A program made the position numbers and the translations under genes. From positions 1-55,659 of IMG/VR virus record IMGVR_UViG_3300005647_000001: a stretch of 55,659 nt of DNA, one strand, 5' to 3'. The notes beneath the pieces were generated by a model. That model ran no database searches. It saw only the letters and a list, made by a program, of their open reading frames with translations, and was not told the origin of the DNA. Shown here piece after piece: positions 30,927-55,078 of this stretch; the first letter of the stretch is position 1; each line of letters begins with the position of its first letter. This DNA comes from a virus.

Positions 30927-32711
30927 TCAGAATACTTCGTTGGGATCAGCGTCAGGGGTGATGAACGCGGTCTGGTTCCTCCACCCGCAACGGCACATGT
31001 AATGAGCGCCTGGGTGGTGCACATCGCCTCGCGGCCACGGCTCGGAGTTGATCGGGAGAACATCCCTCATGATCGGGTCATCGATATCGGTGACGGTGCC
31101 GTCATGAATGAACGATGTGCCGGCGCCGTCAATGTGCACCTGCAGGTTCTCCAGAGCGACACCGTTCATGTTCAGCTGCCACGTGGACTTCACCACCCGC
31201 AGATCGTCGACCGTTTCAACGTCGGGGGATTCCGCGACCAGGCGCCCGATTTCTTCGAGGTCAGCGCGTAGCCGGTCACTGATCTGGATGCCTGGGGTGC
31301 GCGTCGCTACCGCTTGCACAGGCGCCGGTGTGACATTCGAGTGAGCGGCGATCGCCTCGGAGATGAGGCGCTGCCCGATCGGGCCGCACCCCAAACAGTC
31401 TGTGCCGGTGACCCCTCCGCTGACCGGGAACCCGGCGCTGTCACGGTTGACGAACCCATCCGGGTCAAGTTCAGCGCCGCCGGCCAACGCGACGACGTGG
31501 CGGGTGAGCCCGGCCGGAGCGATCAGCGTCTGGTCGGTGCCGTCATGGCCGCTACCCAAACGGTCCTGGACGAGTTCTCGTAGCAGCCGAGAGAATTCGT
31601 CCACCGCCACCTGAGCGTTAGCGGTCATGTCCATCACCGTTTCCGGGTCATAGGTCACCCCAAACCGTTCTTCGGCCGCGTCGATGACCTGGTTAATGCC
31701 GTCGGTGAGGATGCGGCGGGTGTGGTCGGTCGCGTTGTTGATTGGCCCGTCGATCGACCCGTCGATTTTCCCGGGGCGGAGCTCGACAGCCGCGGCCGCT
31801 ACCGCCCACGCAGCAGCGTCAGCTTGCACCGCTCCCGGTTCCGCTTCCGCTTTCTTGAGGCGGCCTACCCGTTCCAGGGCGGACAACAACCCCAGTTCAG
31901 CTGCCGAATCAATTTTCGGCCACACCGTCCTGGTGATCTGTTCCCACACCCCAGTCAGATCAGATAGGGCGCCGTTCAGCGCCGGGAACGGACCGGTGGG
32001 GGTTGCAGCGGCTTGGACCGGTTCCGGCGTGGATCGTCGCTCCGGCAGCGCCTGGCGGCGTTCTGCGAACACTGCGGCGGCTTGGACCATCGCGAACGAT
32101 GACCGGTCCATGGTGGCGTCTGTCAAAGCGACACCGGCGGAACCGTCGACCATGGCCATGACCCGCGCAAGTTTGGTCGGGTCGATGTCCGCAGCTATCG
32201 GCCCGAGGCCTCGGTACCGGCCCGCCTGGTCCTCGATCACAAGCCATGACTGGGCGGCGTCGGTCACTATCCACGCGTCACCGACAGGGAACGACCCGCC
32301 GCGGGTGATCCCATCGGGCGGGAAGTACTCCGCCGCGCTGAACGCTTTCTGGTGGGCGGTGTGAGCGTCGATGAGCCCCAACCGTTCCACATCCAAAGAT
32401 GCGGCGGCGGCTGCGGCCACCGGCGATGTCACCGGCGGAACGGTCGCCGGCGCTGCAGGCGACGGCTTCGCTGCTTCGGCCATGGTGTCGCCTCCCATGA
32501 GTTCCCACGCCAACCACTTTTCGGATCTGGCGGCCTGGTCGGCGGCGGACGGTCGCGGCGTCCGCCCAAAAAAGTTTCGCACTTTCTGTGCGGCGGCATC
32601 GTCGAGCGTTCCGCCGGCAGCTATCCGATTTGGTGTCGACTCGTCCTGGGTGATCGGGGCGACTTCCAACGCTGCGGCAGCGGCACGGACCGCGTCATTC
32701 GGGATGTTCAC
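30927..32711 (-). CDS. MuF-like minor head protein
   Basis: 594 residues following the portal by an ATGA overlap. Alanine-rich helical body. The C-terminus SEPWPRGDVHHPGAHYMCRC resembles the Mu gpF-type ending in which a final His-rich PxxHPxCRC motif closes the domain. This family is found between portal and scaffold/protease in many phages and may be packaged in the head. Also contains TDCLGCGPIG near residue 420. Confidence 0.65.
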   Translation of the reverse strand: MNIPNDAVRAAAAALEVAPITQDESTPNRIAAGGTLDDAAAQKVRNFFGRTPRPSAADQAARSEKWLAWELMGGDTMAEAAKPSPAAPATVPPVTSPVAAAAAASLDVERLGLIDAHTAHQKAFSAAEYFPPDGITRGGSFPVGDAWIVTDAAQSWLVIEDQAGRYRGLGPIAADIDPTKLARVMAMVDGSAGVALTDATMDRSSFAMVQAAAVFAERRQALPERRSTPEPVQAAATPTGPFPALNGALSDLTGVWEQITRTVWPKIDSAAELGLLSALERVGRLKKAEAEPGAVQADAAAWAVAAAAVELRPGKIDGSIDGPINNATDHTRRILTDGINQVIDAAEERFGVTYDPETVMDMTANAQVAVDEFSRLLRELVQDRLGSGHDGTDQTLIAPAGLTRHVVALAGGAELDPDGFVNRDSAGFPVSGGVTGTDCLGCGPIGQRLISEAIAAHSNVTPAPVQAVATRTPGIQISDRLRADLEEIGRLVAESPDVETVDDLRVVKSTWQLNMNGVALENLQVHIDGAGTSFIHDGTVTDIDDPIMRDVLPINSEPWPRGDVHHPGAHYMCRCGWRNQTAFITPDADPNEVF

Positions 32712-34366
32712 AGGTCCCGACCAATAGCAGCGAACGCCCGAGCGTTCCGGGCGCGCTGCGCCACAGTGTCAGCGTCTGTGGTGCGAGGCAACCCGTCCGC
32801 CGGCGGCGGTTGCAGTCCGGTCTCATTGGCTTTGGCTCCGGACACAGCCGCCCAAAACGCAAGGTCATCAAACTGGTCAGTGGCGGGGATCAGGTCATCA
32901 GCGGTGAGACTAAACCGGTCAGCGACCACTTGACGCTTCACGCCGAGGACTTTGTACGCGTCGAGCATCGTTTTGAAGTCATTCGGTTTGACTTCCAGCG
33001 GCGAGCAGTCAAACCCGATGGCGTGGTCTTCGGGGTTCCCGTCTCCGATAGCGCGGCGCCCGGCCGGCGTGAACGCCAGAATCGGCCGGTACGCGAACCG
33101 GGTCCAATCGTCGAGTACTTCGCCCATGCTCGGGTAGACACCGTGGTCATGGAGCGCTGACCGGAGTTCGGTGCTATTCCAATATGTTTGGGAGGCCTCG
33201 CCGGCAACCAGGAACTGGATCGGGACTTTGAGGCCTTGGCCTGCCTGAATGACCATCGCGGCCAACGTCGCCAAAGTCTCTTCGTCTACGGCTCGGCCGA
33301 CGTCCACCATCTCGGGTTTGGTGTGGTGCAGGAACGGGTAGAAAACGCGGGACGCCGGATCAGATCCGTTGGTGTCGCGGAACGCTCGCCCCGCGAACCG
33401 GACAACATCGGTAGCGATTTTGTTGACGCCGCCCGTAGATGACGGCGACGCCGGCAGCATCTGGTTGTTGGGCCCGTAAGAGTTATCGAAGGTGTTCACA
33501 TGCGGGAGACTCATCCCACCGGTGAGATGTTCCGCTTCGAGCTGCTCGGCGCTGTCGCCGCCGGTGCTGATGAACAGGAGCCCGTTCATCAACAATCGCG
33601 AATCGACAGCTGACAGGACGTTACGCATCGATGACCGGCTGGTCCGGATCTCCGGGAGGATGCGCGCCAGGTCCACTTTGGCTTCTCCTTCCCACACGTC
33701 GCCGGGGTTGTGCATCCTTCGAAGATTTTGCGCTGGCAGTTCCACGAAGTCGGTGGACCCGGGCATCGCGTTGGGGCGGAGCTTCACCCCGAAGGTGTCC
33801 GGCCGGTTCGGGACCATCGACAACGCCATCGGGTGAGCGACACCGAAACGGATATCGCCGAACGGTCCGGTGGTTGGCCACCATGCGTGTTCCCCGATCG
33901 ATGACCGGAACCGGAAGCATCGGTACATCAAATATTCTTGGGACCGTTGCGTGTGGCGAATACTGTTCACGACCGCGATCAGGCCGGCGTCGTAGGACCG
34001 TTGCCAACCGGCGGGTGTGCGGACCAGCGGCACGGGGATGCATTGCGCGGCGAGCATCGCCCGTATGTCGTTATAGAACCCGACGAACCCGGGGCCGGTT
34101 TGGTCTGCCCGGTCGACTTCCATTTGGTCTCGGGTCAGTTCAAACCGTAGGCGCTGGGTGCGGGAATTGATGTAGGTGCTCGGGTCGGCGGTGACCGGCG
34201 GCGGCGGGTTCTGGTTGAACTCGATGGGTTCGTAGTAGGGGAGCGGTTCGCGGACGGTGATCCCGGCGCCGTTCAGCGCTTCGGTGCCGGTGACCGGCGG
34301 CCGGCGGGCCGGTGACGCGTGAAGCGTCGCGTCGTTTGCGTCGATCAGGTCAGTCACGGGGTACAT
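32708..34366 (-). CDS. Portal protein
   Basis: 552 residues in the canonical position after the terminase and before the MuF-like gene. Visible portal features: TRDQMEVDRADQTGPGFVGF near the N-terminus, KVDLARILPEIRTSRSSMRN, WNSTELRSALHDHGVYPSMG and a C-terminal SLTADDLIPATDQFDDLAFW region. The ATG at 34366 follows the 34394-34441 hairpin; a GTG further upstream is less likely. Forms the dodecameric channel for DNA packaging. Confidence 0.75.
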   Translation of the reverse strand: MYPVTDLIDANDATLHASPARRPPVTGTEALNGAGITVREPLPYYEPIEFNQNPPPPVTADPSTYINSRTQRLRFELTRDQMEVDRADQTGPGFVGFYNDIRAMLAAQCIPVPLVRTPAGWQRSYDAGLIAVVNSIRHTQRSQEYLMYRCFRFRSSIGEHAWWPTTGPFGDIRFGVAHPMALSMVPNRPDTFGVKLRPNAMPGSTDFVELPAQNLRRMHNPGDVWEGEAKVDLARILPEIRTSRSSMRNVLSAVDSRLLMNGLLFISTGGDSAEQLEAEHLTGGMSLPHVNTFDNSYGPNNQMLPASPSSTGGVNKIATDVVRFAGRAFRDTNGSDPASRVFYPFLHHTKPEMVDVGRAVDEETLATLAAMVIQAGQGLKVPIQFLVAGEASQTYWNSTELRSALHDHGVYPSMGEVLDDWTRFAYRPILAFTPAGRRAIGDGNPEDHAIGFDCSPLEVKPNDFKTMLDAYKVLGVKRQVVADRFSLTADDLIPATDQFDDLAFWAAVSGAKANETGLQPPPADGLPRTTDADTVAQRARNARAFAAIGRDL

Positions 34367-34393
34367 GATGCCATCTGCATGGGGCGACACGCG

Positions 34394-34478: not shown

Positions 34479-35930
34479 TCACATGTCGTCGTCCGGGTCA
34501 GGTTCGAACTCCGCGGCGATCGCCTCCGGGATCTTCACCCCCAAAATGTTCAGTGTGTTCAGGAACTGTTGCGCCGGTGGAAGGCCCCGCTTCACTGCCT
34601 GGACCATTTCACCGACCTGGCTTCGGTATGCGAGCAGCGCCGGGTTCCCATCGGACTCGAGCATCCACTTTGTCAGTGTCTCATCAGCTACCCGAACCCG
34701 GGTACCGCGCCGATTTTGGCGAACATTCCATACGTCTGTGTCTTTGGTATGTGGGTGCTCGGCTTCGGCGATCGCTACCGGATCCACATCAGTGATTTCG
34801 CCGCCAGTCAGGTACTCGATCCTGGCCTGGGTCTGATTGTCACGCGTCATCGCAATGTTGGCCACATAGCCGACCACCGCCGCTGTGGCCTGGGGGACGT
34901 TCGCCGCGTCACGGACCGCGGCCATCAGATCGTCGAACGCTTCGACCCATCCCGCCGGCGGTTCATCGCCGCGACCGTTGATGCGTTTCGGCTGTTTCGC
35001 CTTCGGTATCTTCAACTTCGATTCGCCGTCGGGCATGTGACGCGTCCAGTCCTTGCAACCCTCAGCGGTGTCAACGGTGTCAGTGTGGGAGTACCGTCGG
35101 CGCACCGACCACACGTGGCACGGTTCGCCCCGATGTTTCGCGGCGGTGGTCCCCAACGCCGCCATCGATGACAACGCCCCGGGCCCGTAATACTGCGGGA
35201 TCGGGTTCCGGACTTCGCCAGACACAAACTTGACTTTGATGCCGTCGCCCTGGTGTTTGGCTTTGATGTCCGCCCGGGTCGCGGTGATCGTTCGTTTCAC
35301 CTCGACTTCGCTTTTGCACTGAGACGCCAGCGACGCCCACGTCGTGTACGTCGACCGACTCGGGGTCGCTTTCAAAAACGCGGCGTACACATCCGGGTCG
35401 TTGAGCAGCTTCGCCGCTGCCACCGCTGCTTCCAATGGCCATGTCCCATCCGCCACCAGCCTCGATTCGGTCTCCGGGAGTTCCATAATCGCGAGCCGTT
35501 GCGTAACCCACTTCTTCGATTTTCCCAGGTCTTTCGCGATGTCAGCGACGGTCGTGTCGGTGGCGACCAGGCGGGCCAGAATTTGGGCGGCTTCGACATG
35601 GTCCAGGTCGAGGCGGTGCAGGTTCTCGGTGGCTTGCAATGTGAGACGCTGCCGCTCAGTCAACCCCGATTTGATGATCACAGGGACGGTCAACAGTTTG
35701 GCTTTGCGGGCTGCGGCGAGGCGGCGATGCCCGGCGATCACGTGGAAAAGTTCCTGGTCGAGTTCGTCAGGTCGGGCGATGATCGGGGTGAGGACACCGA
35801 GCTCTGCGATGTTCGAGATGAACTCTTTGTTTAGCACTGGTTTGCGGTTGTCCGGGTCCGGGACCAGGTGGTCCAGGGCCACAGCTGGTTCGTATCGGTC
35901 AGACACGTCTAGTGGTTTGGTGTCGGTCAT
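34479..35930 (-). CDS. ParB/Spo0J-like DNA-binding protein
   Basis: 483 residues. The ParB N-terminal domain at about 20-100 includes LVPDPDNRKPVLNKEFISNI and VIAGHRRLAAARKAKLL (the GxRR-type box). A KorB-like helix-turn-helix follows: DLDHVEAAQILARL and IAKDLGKSKKWVTQRLAIME. The C-terminal half is unique. ParB proteins bind CTP and specific sites; no ParA is present, so a partition role is doubtful and a regulatory or packaging role is possible. It is read from within the end of the previous gene with an AAAAGGA ribosome-binding site. Confidence 0.85.
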   Translation of the reverse strand: MTDTKPLDVSDRYEPAVALDHLVPDPDNRKPVLNKEFISNIAELGVLTPIIARPDELDQELFHVIAGHRRLAAARKAKLLTVPVIIKSGLTERQRLTLQATENLHRLDLDHVEAAQILARLVATDTTVADIAKDLGKSKKWVTQRLAIMELPETESRLVADGTWPLEAAVAAAKLLNDPDVYAAFLKATPSRSTYTTWASLASQCKSEVEVKRTITATRADIKAKHQGDGIKVKFVSGEVRNPIPQYYGPGALSSMAALGTTAAKHRGEPCHVWSVRRRYSHTDTVDTAEGCKDWTRHMPDGESKLKIPKAKQPKRINGRGDEPPAGWVEAFDDLMAAVRDAANVPQATAAVVGYVANIAMTRDNQTQARIEYLTGGEITDVDPVAIAEAEHPHTKDTDVWNVRQNRRGTRVRVADETLTKWMLESDGNPALLAYRSQVGEMVQAVKRGLPPAQQFLNTLNILGVKIPEAIAAEFEPDPDDDM

Positions 35931-36261
35931 TGGTGTTGTCCTTTTGGGTTTGTTGTTGGATTGTGTTGATGAGAGTTTGCAGGCGGTCAGCCCACGGCAC
36001 GGGGAACGGTTCGGGTGATGGCGGCGCCCCCACGGGGGGTATAAGCCATTCCGCAGCGGGGTCTTCCACGGTGAGGTTGTCGCCGTCTGATGCGATCCGG
36101 ACTGACATCCCCCATGGGCCACGCACGGTCAGCGCGGCCATGTGCCGGTTGGAGACGCATGCGCCGGCGACCATAGCGAGGCATCCTTGGCGGATCTGTC
36201 GGATCAGGGCCGGGCCGTCGTCATCGACAACGAGCCCGGTTAGTTGGTAACGGTCAACCAT
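35899..36261 (-). CDS. Hypothetical protein, leaderless, before ParB
   Basis: 120 residues: N-terminal beta strand (YQLTGLVVDDDGPALIRQIR), central CLAMVAGACVSNRHMAALTV and a Gln/Thr/Asn-rich C-terminus whose codons contain the ParB ribosome-binding site (32-base overlap). TATAAT lies six bases before the ATG within the bipartite promoter element. No family was recognised. Confidence 0.65.
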   Translation of the reverse strand: MVDRYQLTGLVVDDDGPALIRQIRQGCLAMVAGACVSNRHMAALTVRGPWGMSVRIASDGDNLTVEDPAAEWLIPPVGAPPSPEPFPVPWADRLQTLINTIQQQTQKDNTNDRHQTTRRV

Positions 36262-36463: not shown

Positions 36464-36709
36464 TCAGACAGTGACGCACGCGCTCGCGGCGACAGCTGCG
36501 ATCAACCGTTTCTGGGTCGCGGCGTTCACTGACACCGTCCGCTTGTGGATCGTGTCGCCCTGATCGCTCATCGCGTATGCGCCGCGCTTGTGTGGGTCGG
36601 ACCGCTCCCACGTGTGATTGCCGAGCACTGTGACCAGCGGCCCGTCGTCCATGGCGAGCCGGTACACGTCACCAACACTGTAGTTCAGGCGAGGCGGTCG
36701 ACGGCCCAC
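36464..36709 (-). CDS. Short paralog of the plus-strand 46628 protein
   Basis: 81 residues. From VYRLAMDDGPLVTVLGNHT through DQGDTIHKRTVSVNAAT it matches the C-terminal half of the 162-residue protein encoded at 46628-47116 (VYRLNVEDRPLVTVLANHT, DRGDTIDKRTGSVNRAT). The N-terminal 90 residues of that protein are missing here. The GTG start overlaps the kinase-like gene's end by 25 bases; a later GTG is also possible. Function unknown; it may be a truncated or minimal form. Confidence 0.55.
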   Translation of the reverse strand: MGRRPPRLNYSVGDVYRLAMDDGPLVTVLGNHTWERSDPHKRGAYAMSDQGDTIHKRTVSVNAATQKRLIAAVAASACVTV

Positions 36710-37194
36710 TTCGGGAGAGAACCAAGTTCATCTCTGGTGATGTACCACCGCCTCAACCGCATCGGCAGATCCAAAATGACGGTCCCGTAGTCATGGCACA
36801 CCACCCGCCCCTTGAGCATCCCGAAATTCTCGGCCTTGATGTCTGTGAGGAACGCCGGCAGCCGCTCCGGGATCTGAGCCCTGACAATCGGGGCGGTGCG
36901 AGCCATGACCAGTTCCCGGGCGTCATCGGACATCCACAGGACCGGCGCCAGCCAGTCTTTCGGGCCGGGGATCGTCCATGACCGGTGATGGTCCCATATC
37001 CGGTTTTCGATGATGTTCTGGGTCGGGGGTTCACCGTCATGGGTGATCTTGATTACCAGGTCGCGGCGACCCCGGAAGGCGTACACGGCCCGGCTGATAC
37101 CGGAGTTGACGTGCTCGCCCATGTCCCCGACGCCGATCTGGCCGTCACCGCTCAGGCGTCCGGGGATCGTGAAGTTCTGTTCTGTGGTTGTCAT
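36685..37194 (-). CDS. Minimal protein-kinase-like protein
   Basis: 169 residues with the order of motifs of a protein kinase fold. Lys49 is in the DLVIKI strand, Glu63 in the NIIENRIWDHH helix, and a hinge-like LVMART lies at 95-100. The catalytic loop TDIKAENFG (117-125) supplies Asp118, Lys120 and Asn123, and HDYG (134-137) is the DFG equivalent. It has almost no C-lobe after the DYG, being much shorter than standard kinases (250-300), so it may be a minimal kinase or a relative of compact phage kinase-like proteins. AAGGA ribosome-binding site; a TATGGT -10 lies upstream. It is read between the terminase and ParB genes. Whether it phosphorylates anything is unknown. Confidence 0.6.
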   Translation of the reverse strand: MTTTEQNFTIPGRLSGDGQIGVGDMGEHVNSGISRAVYAFRGRRDLVIKITHDGEPPTQNIIENRIWDHHRSWTIPGPKDWLAPVLWMSDDARELVMARTAPIVRAQIPERLPAFLTDIKAENFGMLKGRVVCHDYGTVILDLPMRLRRWYITRDELGSLPKWAVDRLA

Positions 37195-37219
37195 GGGTGT
37201 TGTCCTTGGGTTGTTGTCA

Positions 37220-37232
37220 CCCGCCACCATAC
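37220..37232 (-). promoter_or_regulatory. Candidate promoter between terminase and kinase-like gene
   Basis: TATGGT (minus strand) lies within this short gap. A transcript starting about seven bases later would begin near TGACAACAACCCAAGGACAA. That leader resembles the 46486 gene's leader (TTGACAACAACCCAACACC). Confidence 0.4.
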
Positions 37233-37236
37233 GCGC

Positions 37237-38730
37237 TCATGTGGCCCCGAACGCCTGGTCGACGATCGACGACCCCGGGATCGATGATCCCGTACCGTTC
37301 CCGCCGATCAGGTCCGCCGGCTCAATATCGAGCAGCCACGTCACCAGGTGCACCATCGCGTCCAACCGGTTGGGGCTGTCCTTGTCGTCAGCCTCCCAGT
37401 CGCACATTTCGCCTTCGAGTTCTTTGAGGTTGTCGCCGACCAGGTGGACCCGCGCAGGAAGCTTGGTGAACGGTTCTGGGTAGAACAGGTTAGCGACCGG
37501 TGACGCCCGAAGGTACTTCCCGATGCGGGCGTGCACCGGGAAAAACCGGCCTTTGAACCCGGCGGCGGCCAACGGCGCCCGCACATCGTCGCCTTTCCCG
37601 TCGCGGGTCGCTTCGCCGATGATGACGCTGGTCCCGTAATGCAACCCGGCGATCATCGCTACCGGCGCCCATTCATGGGACCGGCCGAGCATCGAGTAGT
37701 CAGCAAATATGTAGGCGTGCCGTCTGCCGGCCGGGTCGTTCTCTCCGTTGTCGCGCCCGCCGGCGATGATGCCGGTGGCGTCGCCTTTCCCGGACCAGGC
37801 CGGGTCAATACTGATCGCCCGGACCGGTAGATCAGCAGGGCGGATGTCATAAACACGGGTCGCGTCGATCAGCTGAGACGTCCACAACGCCCCAGGTTTG
37901 TCTTCTAGGGCGTCCCAGTCGCCTTCGCGCATCGCTTTGCGGCGTCCCCGGTCACTGATCGAAGCGAGCTTCGACGCGTAAGTTGGGTCGTTCGCCATCA
38001 GGATGGCGTTGTCCTCGAGCAGCGCCGGGACGTACACGCGCAGCGGCGGATCTGGGCGATCCGTTGTCGGGGTTTCCCTCCACACGACCATCGGGGCCGG
38101 CGCCGGCCCGGCCGGGTCATGGACACCAGCCGCCGGGCGGACGTACTCGCCTTTGATGTAGTCGTGAGACACGCCACCGGGGTTCGTGGTGAGCACGATC
38201 TTCGGGCGGATCTTCGTGCCGACCGGGGACCGGGCACGGTTCCTGAGTTCCTCGAGCTGGGTGGCGGTGAACTCGGTTGCCTCTTCGAACCCGATGAACC
38301 CGTAGCTGATGCCCTGGTGGGCTTTCCAATCGTTCGGGTCTTTCATGTGGCTGAGGAGCAGCTTCGACCCGTTCGGGAAGATGTATTGCTTTTTGCCGGC
38401 GGACCACACCGCCCGCGGGGTCGGGCCGTCGATCCCCAACATCAGATCAATCAGGTTCTTGACCGTGTGCTCCAACGATTTGAAGTAGCGGCGGAACAGG
38501 ATCCCGAAGTTGTTCGGGTGGCGTTCCATCTGGTGGATCGCGGTGGCGGATAGCCACCAGGTCTTCCCGCCGCCGGCGGCGCCGCCGTACAGGATCTCAT
38601 CGGCTTGGGGGAGCAGTTCAGCGGCTTGGCGCTGTTTCGGTTGGAGGCCTTCGAGGTATCGGGTGTCCAGGCGGGCGCGGCGTTCGAGCTCAGCGGCGTA
38701 GACAGCTAGCTCAGCGGCAGGTTCTGGCAC
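37237..38730 (-). CDS. Terminase large subunit
   Basis: 497 residues. Walker A is YGGAAGGGKTW (about 48-58), Walker B GFIGFEEATEF (about 150), and a coupling-type TTNPGG follows. The RuvC-like nuclease domain starts at AISIDPAWSGKGDATGI (about 308) and ends with NRLDAMVHLVTWLL. It cuts and pumps DNA into the head through the portal. A GTG start is used; the preceding gene is the small subunit. Confidence 0.93.
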   Translation of the reverse strand: MPEPAAELAVYAAELERRARLDTRYLEGLQPKQRQAAELLPQADEILYGGAAGGGKTWWLSATAIHQMERHPNNFGILFRRYFKSLEHTVKNLIDLMLGIDGPTPRAVWSAGKKQYIFPNGSKLLLSHMKDPNDWKAHQGISYGFIGFEEATEFTATQLEELRNRARSPVGTKIRPKIVLTTNPGGVSHDYIKGEYVRPAAGVHDPAGPAPAPMVVWRETPTTDRPDPPLRVYVPALLEDNAILMANDPTYASKLASISDRGRRKAMREGDWDALEDKPGALWTSQLIDATRVYDIRPADLPVRAISIDPAWSGKGDATGIIAGGRDNGENDPAGRRHAYIFADYSMLGRSHEWAPVAMIAGLHYGTSVIIGEATRDGKGDDVRAPLAAAGFKGRFFPVHARIGKYLRASPVANLFYPEPFTKLPARVHLVGDNLKELEGEMCDWEADDKDSPNRLDAMVHLVTWLLDIEPADLIGGNGTGSSIPGSSIVDQAFGAT

Positions 38731-39352: not shown

Positions 39353-39692
39353 CGCCGAGGCCGAGATCAAGTGGTGGCCGCATGAATGGGTCGTAGTCCA
39401 AGTGTGACGGGATGATCGTTGTCCTGATGCCGGTGGGTCCGACCTCGAGGGGGACCCGGGTGGCGGTGGGTCCCCTCACGGTGAACATCGCCATCGGGGG
39501 ACCGTGAGCTCCGGTCTTCGATGTAGATGTCAGCGGCTCCATGAACAGGTCACCGACGCTGCCGAACGGGTGGTCGCAGTGATGAACGATCCCTTCGGTG
39601 ACGGTCACGTGGGTGACGATCGTGCCGGCGGTTTGGGGCGTGTCGCACACCGGGCACGTCAGCTCGAAGTCTTCCCACTGCACACCCGTCAT
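39345..39692 (-). CDS. Putative zinc-binding protein between methylase and terminase
   Basis: 115 residues with an N-terminal CPVCDTPQ pair and a later HHCDHPFG, a possible C2H2/C3H metal site. The remainder is beta-rich (MAMFTVRGPTATRVPLEVGP). ATGA overlap with the methylase gene. Unknown function. Confidence 0.6.
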   Translation of the reverse strand: MTGVQWEDFELTCPVCDTPQTAGTIVTHVTVTEGIVHHCDHPFGSVGDLFMEPLTSTSKTGAHGPPMAMFTVRGPTATRVPLEVGPTGIRTTIIPSHLDYDPFMRPPLDLGLGDE

Positions 39693-41179
39693 GGATGCAC
39701 TTTCTTTGGGGTCTCGTCGATGTACTGAGCTACCCGCTCAATTGATATGTCGGCGTATGTGGGCGATATCTCCATCCCCATGCCGATCCGCCCATGGGCT
39801 GCAGCAGCGACAACCGTGGATCCAGAACCGACAAACGGGTCATATACGGCGTCGCCCTCGTCGGTGTATGCCATCACAAAAAACTCCGGTAGTCCGACAG
39901 GGAACGCGGCGCTGTGTCCTGTCGATTTGTGGGACCCGGAGAATGTGGGCAGCCTGTTGCCCGGGTATGCCATCCCTTTTTTGATGTATTCGCCTGGCGC
40001 AACGTTTTGGCCTTGCACATCAGACATCGTTGACGACGTACCGTTAATGTGCTTTTTCGCTCCGAACATCTGGCCATTGCCACCTTGATTATCTGCCCAG
40101 GTGGTGGCCCCCACGCCAGGACCGCCGGCAACTGGCACATTGTCTGATTGGTGGCGGACATTGTCTGGTCTCATTTTGAACTCGCCGCGCGAAAAGTGGT
40201 AGATCGGCTCGAACTGGTTTTTGAACCGTCGGCCGACACTCTTAGGCATCCCTATGCGTTCCCAACAAAACTCCGTCACCCAGTGCCAACCCCACAACCT
40301 CGCGTGAGCCAACACCAGATCCATCACGTAGAGATCACTGTCCAGGCCTTCGCAGCTCGGTTTGATGTTCACAAACCATGACGCGTCGCCAGCCATAACA
40401 TCCGAAACGTTCGCGGCTATCGGAGAGAACCAATCGACGTATTGGTCAGGGTGGATCGGCACAAATCCGCTAGTCGGGTCGTACTTGCGGCGATCAGCGT
40501 ATGGAGGAGACGTGAATGCCATGTTGACATCGCGCCCGTCAGTCAACAACCGCACATGGTCGATATCAGATGCGTCTCCGATCATGATGCGGTGCGGGCC
40601 TATCTCCCATACATCCCCGAGGGATGATCTGGTCGGTGCGTCAAAGTTGATTGCCCCCTCTGGTTCCATGGTGTCTGAGGACGTGTCATCGATATCGATG
40701 ATCTCCATGGATTCTTCTATGGTGAACCCGGTTGATTCGATCAGTTCTGGCGAGTACTCGATCACGTCTGCCAGCGCTGCCCCCAACATTTCCGTGTCGT
40801 ATGTGCCGAGTTGGCTCGTCCTGTTGTCTGCCAACGCGAACGCTGCGGATTCTTCCGCGGTCATGTCGTCAGCGTCGACGACGGCCATGTGAGACCATTC
40901 AAGCTTCTCTACTGCCATGCGTTGGTGGTTGCCGGCTTGGATCACTGGGTTGCCGTCTGAGTCTTTCCGGGTCACCACAGGCCGGCGTTGGCCAAACGTT
41001 TTATATGATTTGGCGACTGCTTCGACATCGCCGCGGCGCGGGTTCCCCGGTAGCTGCCACAGGTCGACGATGGGTTGAAGCATCGGGACCAGGGCGGCGG
41101 GCCCCCACCATTCCTCGTTTTTGTTGCGGGTCCATCGGCGTGGCTGGTCGGGGTCTTGCACCCATTTCTTGCGCGGCAT
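39689..41179 (-). CDS. ParB-domain / DNA methyltransferase fusion
   Basis: 496 residues. About 35-130 is a ParB-like domain (VEAVAKSYKTFGQRRPVVTR and NPVIQAGNHQRMAVEKL). About 200-495 is a beta-class N4/N6 methyltransferase with motif IV MAFTSPPYADRRKYD and, near the C-terminus, motif I DPFVGSGSTVVAAAA followed by MGMEISPTYADISIERV. It would methylate adenine N6 or cytosine N4; no restriction partner is nearby. In many actinophages such fusions precede the terminase, consistent with marking DNA for packaging or evading host restriction. Starts in a TGATG overlap. Confidence 0.88.
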   Translation of the reverse strand: MPRKKWVQDPDQPRRWTRNKNEEWWGPAALVPMLQPIVDLWQLPGNPRRGDVEAVAKSYKTFGQRRPVVTRKDSDGNPVIQAGNHQRMAVEKLEWSHMAVVDADDMTAEESAAFALADNRTSQLGTYDTEMLGAALADVIEYSPELIESTGFTIEESMEIIDIDDTSSDTMEPEGAINFDAPTRSSLGDVWEIGPHRIMIGDASDIDHVRLLTDGRDVNMAFTSPPYADRRKYDPTSGFVPIHPDQYVDWFSPIAANVSDVMAGDASWFVNIKPSCEGLDSDLYVMDLVLAHARLWGWHWVTEFCWERIGMPKSVGRRFKNQFEPIYHFSRGEFKMRPDNVRHQSDNVPVAGGPGVGATTWADNQGGNGQMFGAKKHINGTSSTMSDVQGQNVAPGEYIKKGMAYPGNRLPTFSGSHKSTGHSAAFPVGLPEFFVMAYTDEGDAVYDPFVGSGSTVVAAAAHGRIGMGMEISPTYADISIERVAQYIDETPKKVHP

Positions 41180-41418
41180 CAGCGATCGCGGCGGATCGGC
41201 GGGCCCTCGGCAGGAGCGTCCGGACCGACCCTGGTCGCGGTGTAGATCCACCGGCCGGTGTCACCGAAGTCGACGCCCTCACGGAACGTCGCCCGGTACT
41301 CGGTGGTGTCGACAACGCGACCGACGAAGACCCCGTTGATGAGGCCACCCTGGGCGCGTCTCGCCGCGGTCATTTCTGCCAGTTCGGCGACGGCATCCGT
41401 GTCTATCCGGACGATCAT
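41179..41418 (-). CDS. Small hypothetical protein before the methylase
   Basis: 79 residues beginning MIVRIDTDAVAELAEMTAAR, then a beta-rich VVDTTEYRATFREGVDFGDT section. Overlaps both neighbours by a few bases. No family was recognised. Confidence 0.55.
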   Translation of the reverse strand: MIVRIDTDAVAELAEMTAARRAQGGLINGVFVGRVVDTTEYRATFREGVDFGDTGRWIYTATRVGPDAPAEGPPIRRDR

Positions 41419-42347
41419 GCTGCGGTCGCTATGCGGGTAGACCCTGGTGCGTAGATTTCGATTTCGGCGGCGGCGTCAGCGAAACTGATGCGGCGGACCG
41501 TCGCCCACCCGATGATGAATCCGCGCACGTTCTCGATGTGGCGGTGCACGCCGGCGAACGTCCGGAACGAAGCGAACGTCAGGCAGGTCAGGACAATGGT
41601 TTGCATGGCCACGTCCAGCGGCAACCGGTACGTAGACCCGTCATTGCTCACTGAGCTGCTGTATTTAGCCCGCATGAGCGGTTGAGTGAACAGCTGGATC
41701 AGGGACGCGGCCGTTGCTCCTGCGATCCCGCCGTGCCCGGCCGGGTCGCCGCCGTGGCCGGGTGCGCCCTCGGTGTAGTGGGTCATGTTGAACCCCCACC
41801 ATTCCTCAGCGCGGACCACCCAGTCGCGCCACTTCATCCGGAATATGACCTGGATCGCCCGGACGATGTGCCAGCCGACGTACATCACGGGCCAGATCGT
41901 CGCGCCGATGAAATCGATGGACCCGTTGGTCGCCCACCCGAACCGTTCCGGGGTCCGATAGTTGATCCCTTGACCGGTGAGCCATTGGAGCAACACGAGC
42001 AGGAGCATGAACGGGTGATCCATCCGGACGGTCTGCGCGCATTTCGGGCCCGATAGTTGCCCGTCATCATCCAGGCAGTGGTCTGCGAGCGGTGGCATTG
42101 CGTGGGCGGGGAGGCCGTGGCGGGCCATGAACTCTGCCGGGAACTGATATTGCGCTTCGGTGGATACCGCCAACACCTCATCCATTTGGGCTTCGAACTC
42201 TGGGGAGTCAGCGGGTGTGGTCGGCGGGGCTTTTAACCATCGTGGCTCGCCGACGATCTTCATCACGTTCACGAACGGTTTCTTGTTGAAGACTTTGGGG
42301 CGGGGTGGGCGGGGTTGGCTGGCGGTGGTGTTGTCGTTTGGGGTCAT
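41415..42347 (-). CDS. Hypothetical protein with hydrophobic helices
   Basis: 310 residues, Thr/Pro-rich at the start. Several hydrophobic segments (HPFMLLLVLLQWLTGQGI; SIDFIGATIWPVMYVGWHIV; MQTIVLTCLTFASF) make it possibly membrane-associated. A glycine-rich stretch (GAPGHGGDPAGHGGIAGATA) lies between. It starts eight bases after a TAACAT -10 box, following the duplicated terminator-promoter cassette. Function unknown. Confidence 0.6.
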   Translation of the reverse strand: MTPNDNTTASQPRPPRPKVFNKKPFVNVMKIVGEPRWLKAPPTTPADSPEFEAQMDEVLAVSTEAQYQFPAEFMARHGLPAHAMPPLADHCLDDDGQLSGPKCAQTVRMDHPFMLLLVLLQWLTGQGINYRTPERFGWATNGSIDFIGATIWPVMYVGWHIVRAIQVIFRMKWRDWVVRAEEWWGFNMTHYTEGAPGHGGDPAGHGGIAGATAASLIQLFTQPLMRAKYSSSVSNDGSTYRLPLDVAMQTIVLTCLTFASFRTFAGVHRHIENVRGFIIGWATVRRISFADAAAEIEIYAPGSTRIATAA

Positions 42348-42350
42348 GGG

Positions 42351-42430
42351 TTCGGATGTTAGCGGCCGGTGTGGGCTGGGACGCGAAACACCCCCCGGCT
42401 GGGAACCTGAGCCGGGGGGTGCTGCGGGGG
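42351..42430. repeat. Terminator-promoter cassette, copy 1
   Basis: Nearly identical to 43111-43190 (offset 760): the last 60 bases are exact, and so is TTCGGATGTTAGC at the promoter end. Only a seven-base segment (42364-42370) differs. On the minus strand it reads terminator hairpin, short linker, then a TAACAT -10 box and the start of the gene at 42347. Confidence 0.8.
42389..42421 (-). terminator. Terminator hairpin in cassette copy 1
   Basis: A perfect 12-bp stem CACCCCCCGGCT/AGCCGGGGGGTG with a nine-base loop is followed on the minus strand by TTTCGCG. Probably ends the transcript of the small zinc-binding gene at 42443. Confidence 0.65.
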
Positions 42431-42442
42431 GGGTGGGGGGGG

Positions 42443-42655
42443 TTAGTAGTGCCATTCGTTCAGCCACGATTGGTGACACCCCGAGCACAGGTCTCCTTCG
42501 CCCATGGTTTCGGTGTACCAGCCGCTGTCATGGGCCAGGAACGAGGCTTCGGCCGTGTCGCCGTCAGTGTCGAAACTGATCGTGGTTTCGCATCCGCTGT
42601 TTTCGCAGTGCAGGGTTACTACGGGGTTGGTCTTGGTGGCTGTGGTGTTGTCCAT
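42443..42655 (-). CDS. Small zinc-finger-like protein, leaderless
   Basis: 70 residues with LHCENSGCETTISF and GDLCSGCHQSWL, a possible four-cysteine zinc site. Begins MDNTTATK directly at the transcription start expected from a TATACT box six bases upstream. A monocistronic gene closed by the cassette terminator. Confidence 0.65.
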   Translation of the reverse strand: MDNTTATKTNPVVTLHCENSGCETTISFDTDGDTAEASFLAHDSGWYTETMGEGDLCSGCHQSWLNEWHY

Positions 42656-42661
42656 AACCCC

Positions 42662-42679
42662 AGTATACGGGGGGTTATA
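42662..42679 (-). promoter_or_regulatory. TATA-C6-TATA promoter element
   Basis: Minus strand TATAACCCCCCGTATACT, six bases before the ATG at 42655. The second TATA half forms the -10 (TATACT). Confidence 0.65.
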
Positions 42680-42691
42680 TGGGGTTGCAAG

Positions 42692-42889
42692 TTATGGGGT
42701 GCGGTTCGGTTCCCATGACGCCGGCGCCAACCGCACAACCTCAGCCGATGCCAGGACCGGGATGATGTGGAAAGCGTAGTGCCGGACGCCGCTGGCGATG
42801 TTGCCTCGGGAGTATCCGGCGGCCTGCCATGACTCCACCATCTGCCGGATGACAGCGGGATCTGCTCCGGGGATGCGTGGGGCGGTCAC
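42692..42889 (-). CDS. Small helical protein
   Basis: 65 residues beginning with GTG in a GTGA overlap. IPGADPAVIRQMVESWQAAG and YSRGNIASGVRHYAFHIIPV give a helix-turn-helix-like outline but no clear family. Confidence 0.5.
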   Translation of the reverse strand: MTAPRIPGADPAVIRQMVESWQAAGYSRGNIASGVRHYAFHIIPVLASAEVVRLAPASWEPNRTP

Positions 42890-43107
42890 AGGTTCGGGTC
42901 CGCTGACTTGACCCACCGGCAGGTGTACACCGCTGCTTCGGCGGTGAGTAGCCCGATGATCTCAGGGACGCACATGCCGTCACTGGTTTCTGTGACCGTG
43001 ACGCTGTTCCCGTCATCGGTGGTGACCACCTGGATGATGATCTCTTTTTCTACCCACCCGTTCAGGTGATCATCATCTATCCGGCGAGGGAGGGTGTTGT
43101 CGCTCAT
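42886..43107 (-). CDS. Small hypothetical protein after cassette copy 2
   Basis: 73 residues with acidic N-terminus (RRIDDDHLNGWVEKEIIIQV) and a cysteine pair (TSDGMCVPEI, VYTCRWVKS). Begins eight bases after the TAACAT box of the second cassette copy. Unknown function. Confidence 0.55.
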   Translation of the reverse strand: MSDNTLPRRIDDDHLNGWVEKEIIIQVVTTDDGNSVTVTETSDGMCVPEIIGLLTAEAAVYTCRWVKSADPNL

Positions 43108-43110
43108 CGT

Positions 43111-43190
43111 TTCGGATGTTAGCTGCATGCGTGGGCTGGGACGCGAAACACCCCCCGGCTGGGAACCTGAGCCGGGGGGTGCTGCGGGGG
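43111..43190. repeat. Terminator-promoter cassette, copy 2
   Basis: Second copy of the 42351-42430 element, 760 bases upstream in transcription. It separates the leaderless gene at 43643 from the gene starting at 43107. The exact agreement over 60 bases points to recent duplication or gene conversion. Confidence 0.8.
43149..43181 (-). terminator. Terminator hairpin in cassette copy 2
   Basis: Same perfect 12-bp stem (CACCCCCCGGCT/AGCCGGGGGGTG) and nine-base loop as copy 1, followed by TTTCGCG on the minus strand. Confidence 0.65.
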
Positions 43191-43202
43191 GGTGGGGGGG
43201 GA

Positions 43203-43643
43203 CTATTTGTGGTTGCCGGAATCGATCAGTTCATCGATCAATCGACCCATTTCCCAACAGGCGTCGCTGCGCTGTGCCCACAACCTGTCGACCGTGAACG
43301 TCCGGAGATCAACAATCACCGGTTCGTCGTCGCCCATGACATACGCCTCGAATGGGCCGAGCGTGCCCTTGCTGGGGTTCGATTCAACCGGTTCGGACCA
43401 TTCGGCCACATACTGGTCGGTTTCGGTGCCGTCACCGTCGGTGTGCCGGTAGGCGAAAATTCGGCGGTCGTCGTCGTCACAGATGTTGACTGGTCGAAGG
43501 AACCGGGCGAATCGGCGCATGTTCTCAGCGAACCAGTACTCAGCTTGTTGTTCTGATCCGTCGACACCGACGAAACGGCTGATGAGTCCGTTGTCTTCGG
43601 CGAGGTCGTTGGGGGTGGGTGCTGCTTTGGTTTTGTTGTCCAT
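43203..43643 (-). CDS. Hypothetical acidic protein, leaderless
   Basis: 146 residues beginning MDNKTKAA. Contains QAEYWFAENMRRFARFLRPV, NICDDDDRRIFAYRHTDGDG and an EPVIVDLRTFTVDRLWAQRS segment. No family was recognised. TATAGT six bases before the ATG; terminator cassette follows the stop. Confidence 0.65.
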   Translation of the reverse strand: MDNKTKAAPTPNDLAEDNGLISRFVGVDGSEQQAEYWFAENMRRFARFLRPVNICDDDDRRIFAYRHTDGDGTETDQYVAEWSEPVESNPSKGTLGPFEAYVMGDDEPVIVDLRTFTVDRLWAQRSDACWEMGRLIDELIDSGNHK

Positions 43644-43649
43644 ACCCAC

Positions 43650-43668
43650 ACTATACGGGGGGTTATAA
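43650..43668 (-). promoter_or_regulatory. TATA-C6-TATA promoter element
   Basis: Minus strand TTATAACCCCCCGTATAGT, six bases before the ATG at 43643; -10 is TATAGT. Confidence 0.65.
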
Positions 43669-43694
43669 CGGGATGCAAACCCATAACCAGGAAT

Positions 43695-48868: not shown

Positions 48869-49539
48869 CGGATTTCGTAGGGGCCGGGGGTCGGTGGGCG
48901 TTCCCCGTCCGGGAACGATGCGGAGTAGATCCCGTGCTCGAGGGTGGTGGGCCCGTAGACAGCCAGGCCGAGGCACGCGGTGCGGGCCAGTTCTGCGATG
49001 GTGAGTCCGATGGGTTGGCCGTTGGTGTCTTCGCCGTAGATCATGACGGGCCCGTAGATGTTCTGTCCCATGATCATGGTGGCGATGGAGCATTCACCCA
49101 GGAGACCCACCAACCGGGACCGCGCCTGTTCGTTCGGGTCGCCGGCCCATAGGCGGACCTCTACCCCGTCCTCAGCGTGGGTCAGGGTGGTGGCGTGGTC
49201 CGGGAACGGGACCGGCACCAACACTTTGGAACTGACCCACACCGAGTCGCGGGGCCCGTTCAGTTGGGTAAGGAACGGGGCGGCGGACCTACCGCCCAGG
49301 ATGACCAGCGCATAGCGGGGTGGTTCCGGTTGCGGGACGGGTTTCAGGCCGGTCTGCTCTTGTTGCCATGGGTAGTTCCCATATAGGGGAGTTTCGCCGC
49401 GACCGTGGCACACGTCGCAGTCTCTGACGGTGTCGCCGGTGGGTCCGATCCCTGAGCCGCCGCAGGAACCGCACGGCTCCCACGTCACGTTCAGGTCACG
49501 CGGCGGCGGATGGTGTGGTGTGGATGGTGGTGTTGTCAT
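48865..49539 (-). CDS. DnaJ-type zinc-finger protein, leaderless
   Basis: 224 residues. N-terminal EPCGSCGGSGIGPTGDTVRD and CDVCHGRGE form a DnaJ-like finger. A C-terminal domain (RYALVILGGRSAAPFLTQLN to YGPVMIYGEDTNGQPIGLTI) is of unknown fold. TATACT seven bases before the ATG indicates a leaderless transcript. Confidence 0.65.
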   Translation of the reverse strand: MTTPPSTPHHPPPRDLNVTWEPCGSCGGSGIGPTGDTVRDCDVCHGRGETPLYGNYPWQQEQTGLKPVPQPEPPRYALVILGGRSAAPFLTQLNGPRDSVWVSSKVLVPVPFPDHATTLTHAEDGVEVRLWAGDPNEQARSRLVGLLGECSIATMIMGQNIYGPVMIYGEDTNGQPIGLTIAELARTACLGLAVYGPTTLEHGIYSASFPDGERPPTPGPYEIR

Positions 49540-49546
49540 ACCCCCC

Positions 49547-49564
49547 AGTATACGGGGTGTTATA
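49547..49564 (-). promoter_or_regulatory. TATA-C4-TATA promoter element
   Basis: Minus strand TATAACACCCCGTATACT, seven bases before the ATG at 49539; -10 is TATACT. Confidence 0.65.
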
Positions 49565-49583
49565 GAAACCCCAAAACGGAAAA

Positions 49584-49816: not shown

Positions 49817-50220
49817 GACGCCACCCGGATCAGGTCCTCATTGACCAACGCCGCGACCGTGACAGCCGCCTCAGCGGAACTGAACACCAGGCGGGCGCCG
49901 TCCTCATCAGCGACAAACAAGTGATCACGATCCCGGACCACCACAATCCGGCCGTCCACGACAACCGCGCGAGCCGCGATCGGTTCCGTGGGGAAGTAGT
50001 TGGTGCGCTGCTCCTCCTGGTCCGCTTCATACTCACCCCACAAGTACTCGGCGTCCATGATCTCCCGATACGCCCAATGCCGGTACGTGTTAGCACCAAC
50101 CTGCGGGATGACCACCTCGGTCACATATTCCTCGAACACGCCCTGGTTGAGACGGTCCAAACGCTCCACCGCCACGGCAGCAGAGTCAAGGGTCATAACT
50201 GAATGTTGGTTGTTGTCCAT
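49804..50220 (-). CDS. Hypothetical acidic protein, leaderless
   Basis: 138 residues beginning MDNNQHSV. LDRLNQGVFEEYVTEVVIPQ, WAYREIMDAEYLWGEYEADQ and AARAVVVDGRIVVVRDRDHL. No family was recognised. TATAAT lies six bases before the ATG; earlier in-frame codons run through the promoter and are rejected. Confidence 0.65.
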   Translation of the reverse strand: MDNNQHSVMTLDSAAVAVERLDRLNQGVFEEYVTEVVIPQVGANTYRHWAYREIMDAEYLWGEYEADQEEQRTNYFPTEPIAARAVVVDGRIVVVRDRDHLFVADEDGARLVFSSAEAAVTVAALVNEDLIRVASWRP

Positions 50221-50226
50221 AACCCA

Positions 50227-50244
50227 ATTATACGGGGGGTTATA
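50227..50244 (-). promoter_or_regulatory. TATA-C6-TATA promoter element
   Basis: Minus strand TATAACCCCCCGTATAAT, six bases before the ATG at 50220; the best match to consensus, with a perfect TATAAT. Confidence 0.7.
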
Positions 50245-50309
50245 TGTGGTTGCAACTTTTACCCCCGTCACCCACCCCAACAACAACACCGTCGACCAAA
50301 AAAGGTGGG

Positions 50310-54331: not shown

Positions 54332-54692
54332 GGTGGTCGCCTCCTGGCGGGTACCGGAGCGGGACCGCGGACTCAGCGATCACGTTGGGCTGGCGGATCT
54401 GGTTGGTGGCCACGATGGCCATACCAATGATCACTGAGAAGACCAACGCCACCAGCATTGACACGGCGAACAGGGCCAGGTGCTCGCGCCATGGTGTCCC
54501 CCATCCGAACGCGGCGCCGGCGATCAGCGCCGGTTCGAGCCCGGAACAGAACATGCACGCCGCTTTGAGGCTCCAGAACGGCCGGTATTTGATTCGGTCG
54601 CGGTACCCGCGGAACAGGTCCGACTCGACTATCAGCCATCCGGAAACGACCCACACCGCGGCGGTGGCCAGGACAATCAGCAAAGGGTTCAT
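54324..54692 (-). CDS. Multi-pass membrane protein (DUF1360-like)
   Basis: 122 residues with N-terminal (LLIVLATAAVWVVSGWLIVE) and C-terminal (HLALFAVSMLVALVFSVIIG) hydrophobic helices and a central SLKAACMFCSGLEPALIAGA cysteine-bearing segment, the outline of DUF1360-like phage and actinobacterial membrane proteins. Function unknown. ATGA overlap with the WhiB gene. Confidence 0.55.
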   Translation of the reverse strand: MNPLLIVLATAAVWVVSGWLIVESDLFRGYRDRIKYRPFWSLKAACMFCSGLEPALIAGAAFGWGTPWREHLALFAVSMLVALVFSVIIGMAIVATNQIRQPNVIAESAVPLRYPPGGDHHG

Positions 54693-55078
54693 GGCGGCGA
54701 TGGTATATCACCGCTGCGGTTGACCCGACGTTGACGGGATCGCAGGTTCCTCGACCGGATCAGACAGTCCGGGTGGTAGAGGCGGGTCACTGGTGCGTCC
54801 GCAGGGAGCGCCTGATCGCAGTCGTCAGCCTGGCAGCGTCGCGGCGCCGCGGCTTTGCGGGCTGATCGTTGCTGGTGGGTGAGGCCGCCCCATACGCCGT
54901 ACGGGACGGTGGGATGCCCGCCGACGTGGATCACCGCAGCTGCGCACCGCTGCTTCATCCAGGCGGGGCACACAGAGCAACACGCCTGGATGAACGCTGC
55001 GGTAGCGGTCGGGTCACCGTCGAGGGTTTGTTGCCACATCGCCGCGTGGCCACGACACGGCGGTTCTGGTTCGCCCAC
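54689..55078 (-). CDS. WhiB-family iron-sulfur transcription factor
   Basis: 129 residues. The cluster cysteines lie in PPCRGHAAMWQQ and ACCSVCPAWMKQRC, followed by the family turn VPYGVWGGLTHQQRSARK. Basic C-terminal extension with a further C-x4-C and HPDC zinc-like motif (RRCQADDCDQALPAD, LYHPDCLIRSRN). Such phage WhiB proteins can block or redirect host transcription. GTG start with an AGGGGA ribosome-binding site. Confidence 0.9.
   Translation of the reverse strand: MGEPEPPCRGHAAMWQQTLDGDPTATAAFIQACCSVCPAWMKQRCAAAVIHVGGHPTVPYGVWGGLTHQQRSARKAAAPRRCQADDCDQALPADAPVTRLYHPDCLIRSRNLRSRQRRVNRSGDIPSPP

What the first reader, a model, noticed from the sequence alone, without database searches (positions are those of the whole stretch)
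36685..37194. Compact protein-kinase-like protein between terminase and ParB genes
All hallmark residues are in order in only 169 residues: Lys49, Glu63, hinge, catalytic loop DIKAEN (118-123) and DYG (135-137), with nearly no C-lobe. It would be one of the shortest kinase-like proteins and lies among packaging and ParB genes, so targets could be phage structural or host proteins.
Basis: partly seen in the sequence, partly recalled or inferred. Interest (0 to 1): 0.7.

Follow-up and report, generated by a model that had tools for sequence, protein, structure and literature searches.

The report
Phage kinase family lacking C-lobe
This phage gene encodes a very small protein built like the ATP-binding half of a protein kinase; it belongs to a widespread but unstudied phage family whose active-site residues are almost perfectly conserved although most of the usual second half of a kinase is missing, so it probably needs a partner to work.

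Summary
The gene is real, but on the minus strand (37194 to 36685, 169 aa, start ATG 37194). It belongs to phrog_4301 (E 2.3e-27), a phage family listed as "unknown function" in PHROGs. Among 65 members at most 80% identical, K49, N60, E63 and D135 are invariant, N123 is 64/65, and D118 is 61/65 (Glu in four). Purifying selection is strong in close pairs. AlphaFold2 gives a confident kinase core (residues 25-137): five N-lobe strands, helix C, catalytic loop, beta7-beta8, DYG. Every listed PDB fold hit is a kinase, OspG first. So the kinase-like reading is supported. C-lobe helices E to I, HRD, the activation segment and APE are missing. A sister clade of 120-126 aa proteins stops 0-2 residues after DYG, with no shared neighbouring gene. 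Gene position is not conserved, so the inference that packaging proteins are the targets is not supported. Most likely it is an ATP-dependent phosphotransferase acting on host or defence components, with its missing lobe supplied by a partner, substrate or dimer. Activity is untested. A few relatives were already annotated "kinase"; I found no description of the C-lobe-less architecture.

The parts
36685..37194 (-). phrog_4301 minimal kinase-fold protein, 169 aa (stop included); core residues 25-137
   Evidence: phrog_4301 E 2.3e-27; AF2 pLDDT 81, core blocks 84-97; PDB fold hits listed are all kinases
37090..37122 (-). glycine-rich-loop region, residues 25-35 (GxxxxxGxxR; G32 and R35 invariant where aligned)
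37048..37050 (-). K49, beta3 ATP-binding lysine
   Evidence: 65/65
37006..37008 (-). E63, helix-C glutamate (helix 58-71)
   Evidence: 65/65; helix in model
36826..36843 (-). catalytic loop D118-I-K-A-E-N123
   Evidence: D118 61/65 (Glu in 4), N123 64/65
36784..36792 (-). metal-binding D135-Y136-G137 (DFG equivalent)
   Evidence: D135 65/65, Y136 63/65
36688..36783 (-). C-terminal tail, residues 138-169, low-confidence short helices; replaces the C-lobe
   Evidence: pLDDT about 54-61 over residues 141-169
37203..37207 (-). probable ribosome-binding site AAGGA upstream of ATG 37194
   Evidence: sequence read

Best explanation
A minimal kinase-fold phosphotransferase made by the phage. Shown by prediction and conservation: a complete ATP-binding N-lobe (Gly-loop, K49-E63 pair), a catalytic loop (D118, N123) and a metal-binding DYG (D135). 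Inferred: it binds Mg-ATP in the canonical way and D118 positions the acceptor. Because helices E to I, the activation segment and APE are absent, it cannot build a normal substrate groove by itself; I infer that a partner, the substrate itself or a homodimer completes the active unit, as the ubiquitin/E2-Ub partner does for OspG. Also inferred: the target is a host or defence component, because the gene behaves like an accessory gene that moves between genome positions and phage types.
For: Invariant catalytic set in 65 divergent homologues; dN/dS 0.04-0.13 in eight of nine usable close pairs; AF2 core and strand/helix order matching a kinase; 8 PDB hits at E<1e-3, all kinases (OspG 4.3e-4 first, then Cdk1, Src, PRPK/Bud32, TTK, BMPR2); own family plus viral kinases in BFVD; the 122-aa relative's 50 listed PDB hits are all kinases, none below 1e-3; sub-threshold sequence hits are mostly kinases, B-raf in the right register. 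Precedents: OspG needs ubiquitin or E2-Ub (PMC7943720, PMC13395416); phage JSS1_004/gp0.7 kinases phosphorylate host and defence proteins (PMC12345140). Varied gene positions.
Against: No activity data. SteC, also C-lobe-depleted, needs part of its C-lobe for catalysis, and its N-lobe construct was inactive (PMC13395416). A subgroup of the short clade has E/S for the catalytic D/N. Full-length TM-scores to PDB kinases are modest (0.36-0.50 by query length). No partner gene travels with it. Pfam gives no significant hit.
Confidence: 0.58

Rival explanations
1. Pseudokinase or ATP-dependent switch: it binds ATP-Mg but transfers no phosphate; nucleotide-dependent binding to a host protein is the function.
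For: C-lobe absent; a short-clade subgroup replaces D118 by E and N123 by S while K, E and DYG are kept.
Against: D118 is 61/65 and N123 64/65 in the whole set and both are present in the window protein; conserving the entire catalytic set suggests catalysis.
Confidence: 0.2
2. Nucleic-acid or small-molecule kinase (Ark1/Bud32-like): phosphorylates tRNA or another non-protein acceptor.
For: Fold hits include archaeal RNA kinase Ark1 (173 aa), Bud32/PRPK and RIO2; single relatives lie beside a tRNA cluster, rnlB or an annotated RNA-binding protein.
Against: Those neighbours are not shared across the family; the window has no tRNA gene.
Confidence: 0.15
3. Packaging regulator: phosphorylates terminase, portal or capsid proteins.
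For: Directly beside terL in the window, L012, L026 and L079, and between portal and a further head gene in L040.
Against: Only 5 of 65 loci; most relatives lie elsewhere.
Confidence: 0.07

Closest known systems
phrog_4301 (PHROGs v4, unknown function): e.g. YuA gp39, PaMx25 gp65, 121Q gp215, JS10 EpJS10_0174
   Same: Same family (E 2.3e-27; all 13 tested relatives hit it). Some members are annotated kinase: PAKlein3, XM05, AH04, Kc263, Lydia
   Different: The window protein is a divergent member (at most 45% identity), in a phage that carries a WhiB gene; no phage of an actinobacterial host was among the named phage hits listed
OspG/NleH and SteC bacterial effector kinases (minimal C-lobe)
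   Same: Kinase core with a reduced C-lobe; OspG is the best PDB fold hit
   Different: No sequence similarity found; OspG chains are 168-171 residues and, from general knowledge, keep more C-lobe; the phage family has lost still more
T7 gp0.7 / JSS1_004 phage protein kinase
   Same: Phage-encoded kinase-like protein with a Gly-loop and an IKV motif; possibly the same kind of role
   Different: hhalign aligns only 28 columns of the Gly-loop region, probability 32%; gp0.7 has DMHxGN and ITDP motifs, a long region before the catalytic loop and a C-terminal shutoff domain
YrbL (PF10707)
   Same: GxGxxR Gly-loop with Arg at the third-Gly position; weak sub-threshold hits from 5 of 35 members
   Different: Best E 0.038, below the curated cut-off; YrbL is 210 aa and matches Pkinase (E 0.0013)
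Ark1 / Bud32 / RIO2 small atypical kinases
   Same: Small kinase folds among the PDB hits
   Different: They are longer (173 residues for Ark1, about 230-270 for the others) and, from general knowledge, keep a C-lobe; no sequence link found

Membership tests
phrog_4301 | HMM match over the core | tested here: met
   E 2.3e-27, residues 25-146
Protein-kinase-like fold | Five-strand N-lobe with helix C, catalytic loop, beta7-beta8, DFG-like site | tested here: met
   AF2; PDB hits listed are all kinases
Protein-kinase-like fold | K/E/D/N/D catalytic set conserved | tested here: met
   D118 is Glu in 4 of 65
Canonical Ser/Thr protein kinase (PF00069) | Pfam Pkinase match | tested here: not met
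   no hit
Canonical Ser/Thr protein kinase (PF00069) | HRD motif, activation segment with APE, helices F to I | tested here: not met
   The loop has no HR before the Asp; 32 residues after DYG here and 0-2 in the short clade
Active kinase | Phosphate transfer from ATP | not testable with these tools
   needs biochemistry
T7 gp0.7 kinase family | Sequence/profile homology along the kinase domain | tested here: not met
   28 columns, probability 32%
YrbL (PF10707) | Score above curated cut-off | tested here: not met
   best E 0.038
Known anti-phage defence protein | PADLOC model match | tested here: not met
   no hit

The most novel reading that the evidence does not exclude
phrog_4301 proteins are 'half kinases': catalytically active phosphotransferases of 120-170 aa made of the N-lobe and catalytic hairpin only, with the C-lobe function supplied in trans by a host protein, the substrate or a dimer. 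This would be the smallest working kinase fold that I know of.
Probability: 0.3. Interest if true: 0.75.

Novelty: new variant of a known kind. Interest (0 to 1): 0.52.

Why it matters
If active, the family shows how little of the kinase fold is needed for phosphate transfer and gives a compact model for partner-dependent kinases. The family occurs in well-studied laboratory phage types (YuA, M6, JS10, 121Q), so its role in host takeover or counter-defence is testable now.

Tried and rejected
Gene position as a clue to target: rejected, position varies. Split C-lobe in an adjacent gene: none shared among the short-clade loci and no family-wide neighbour in the main set. T7 gp0.7 and YrbL as parent families: only the Gly-loop region aligns. 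Pfam Abhydrolase_8 (E 0.23): noise. A defence-system origin: no PADLOC hit. A bacterial housekeeping family: a restricted pattern scan of genome contigs found one MAG locus (Opitutus), and 1 of 195 genomes of that phylum had a match, the same one, so it looks mainly viral. One genome-contig query failed for lack of conserved columns and two genome-search runs failed for want of a genome handle. Literature: one term search for the PHROG number found nothing; ten searches in all, open-licence papers only.

Full report
Observation. The quoted interval read on the + strand contains a stop. The gene lies on the - strand: ATG 37194 to the stop at 36685, 169 aa, with AAGGA about 8 nt upstream; a longer start at 37230 gives 181 aa. 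It follows the large terminase gene (37237-38730) by 10 nt, counted from the longer start, and precedes a ParB gene (34479-36122) and a portal gene (32708-34390) on the same strand.

Family. It matches phrog_4301 (unknown function) at E 2.3e-27 and no Pfam family significantly. tblastn finds relatives in 92 phage records at E<1, including YuA, M6, PaMx25, NP1, Lacusarx, XM05 and R26L, and at weak E-values jumbo and T4-like phages. All 13 relatives tested, including JS10 and 121Q, hit phrog_4301. IMG/VR gave 48 and 41 loci in two scans, partly the same contigs. In bacterial genomes a restricted pattern scan found one locus, in a metagenome-assembled Opitutus genome, and 1 of 195 genomes of that phylum had a match, the same one.

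Conservation. In 65 sequences at most 80% identical the most conserved positions are K49, N60, E63, D135 (65/65), N123 (64), R35 and G32 (64/64 aligned), Y136 (63) and D118 (61, otherwise Glu). Eight of nine close pairs with usable estimates have dN/dS 0.04-0.13; the ninth, only 50% identical, gives 0.33. N60, R35 in the Gly-loop and W67 are family signatures outside the classical kinase set.

Fold. AlphaFold2 on a 35-row alignment: mean pLDDT 81, pTM 0.72; in residues 21-140 the ten-residue means are 84-97, while the N-terminus and tail are poor. Order: beta1 25-31, beta2 35-40, beta3 46-51, helix C 58-71, beta4 85-88, beta5 94-98, catalytic loop 118-123, beta7 124-127, beta8 130-133, DYG 135-137 (the strand names and the loop are my assignment). 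Foldseek against PDB: eight hits below 1e-3, all kinases, OspG first; the other listed hits are kinases or kinase-fold entries too. BFVD gives own family members at about 1e-12, then viral kinases. Sequence profiles against PDB give only sub-threshold hits, mostly kinases, with B-raf aligned in register from the Gly-loop through the Lys and helix-C Glu.

Missing C-lobe. Seventeen to 28 residues separate hinge and catalytic loop in the main clade, 30-37 in the short clade and its longer relatives. The short clade (JS10, 121Q, Y3, G4507, G17, PS1, RHph_I42 and IMG/VR relatives; mostly 120-126 aa, longer where the start is uncertain) ends 0-2 residues after DYG or DLG, with stop codons of all three types and no shared neighbouring gene at E<1e-3. 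Several of these loci are near-copies of one another (for example JS10 and L075), so the number of independent lineages is smaller than the number of loci. Both clades are homologous (hhalign 98.8%, E 8e-17) and the short clade, together with the longer AH04/OBP/Kc263 proteins, is one side of a fully supported branch. AF2 of the 122-aa protein: pLDDT 84.8, pTM 0.78, with a helix in the place of helix E; its listed PDB hits are all kinases but none is below 1e-3. Part of the short clade has E..S in place of D..N.

Context. terL or portal lies directly adjacent in 5 of 65 loci (window, L012, L026, L079, L040), and packaging genes are within about 4 kb in 11 more by my reading of the neighbour clusters. 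No formal enrichment test was run. Elsewhere it is near primase, DNA polymerase, denV, rnlB or a tRNA cluster. Position is therefore not evidence for a packaging target.

Mechanism. Shown: conserved ATP/Mg site and kinase-type core, by prediction and conservation. Inferred: phosphate transfer, partner dependence and a host or defence target. Precedents: OspG is activated by ubiquitin or E2-Ub, SteC needs its remaining C-lobe (PMC7943720, PMC13395416); T7-like JSS1_004 phosphorylates DndFGH and many host proteins (PMC12345140). The phage Lydia record names its copy a T7-like kinase, but profile comparison does not support gp0.7 membership.

Novelty. Kinase annotation of single members is not new. 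The systematic C-lobe loss, its sharp end at DYG and the E/S variant were not found in the papers searched; the library covers open-licence papers only and ten searches were made.

Noticed in passing
L076, L186, L187, L188, L072 (short clade): Catalytic loop has Glu and Ser where the rest have Asp and Asn (E..K..S-F-G type): the two change together while K, E and DYG stay; possible altered chemistry or pseudokinase.
   Followed up: partly
window 54692-55078 (-): WhiB-like protein (PF02467, E 3.8e-5): suggests an actinobacterial host, unlike the named phage hits listed for the kinase family.
   Followed up: partly
window 42646-42693, 43634-43681, 49531-49578, 50211-50258: Four copies of a 48-nt element (TGTTGTCCATA...TATACGGGGGGTTATA), 63-92% alike to the first; look like repeated promoter or operator sites.
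   Followed up: no
window 42344-42451 and 43104-43211: Two 108-nt direct repeats, 89% identical, 760 nt apart.
   Followed up: no
window 39692-41251 and 34479-36122 (-): A ParB-like protein fused to an N6/N4 DNA methylase and a separate ParB-like protein with an HTH flank the terminase-kinase genes.
   Followed up: partly
IMGVR_UViG_3300005654_000077 (L019): A contig listed separately in IMG/VR, 100% identical over the 16.5 kb compared: the same phage population.
   Followed up: yes
L069 and L070: OBP_197 (273 aa) and Kc263 gp027 (267 aa): longer family members with C-terminal extensions, no Pfam match.
   Followed up: partly
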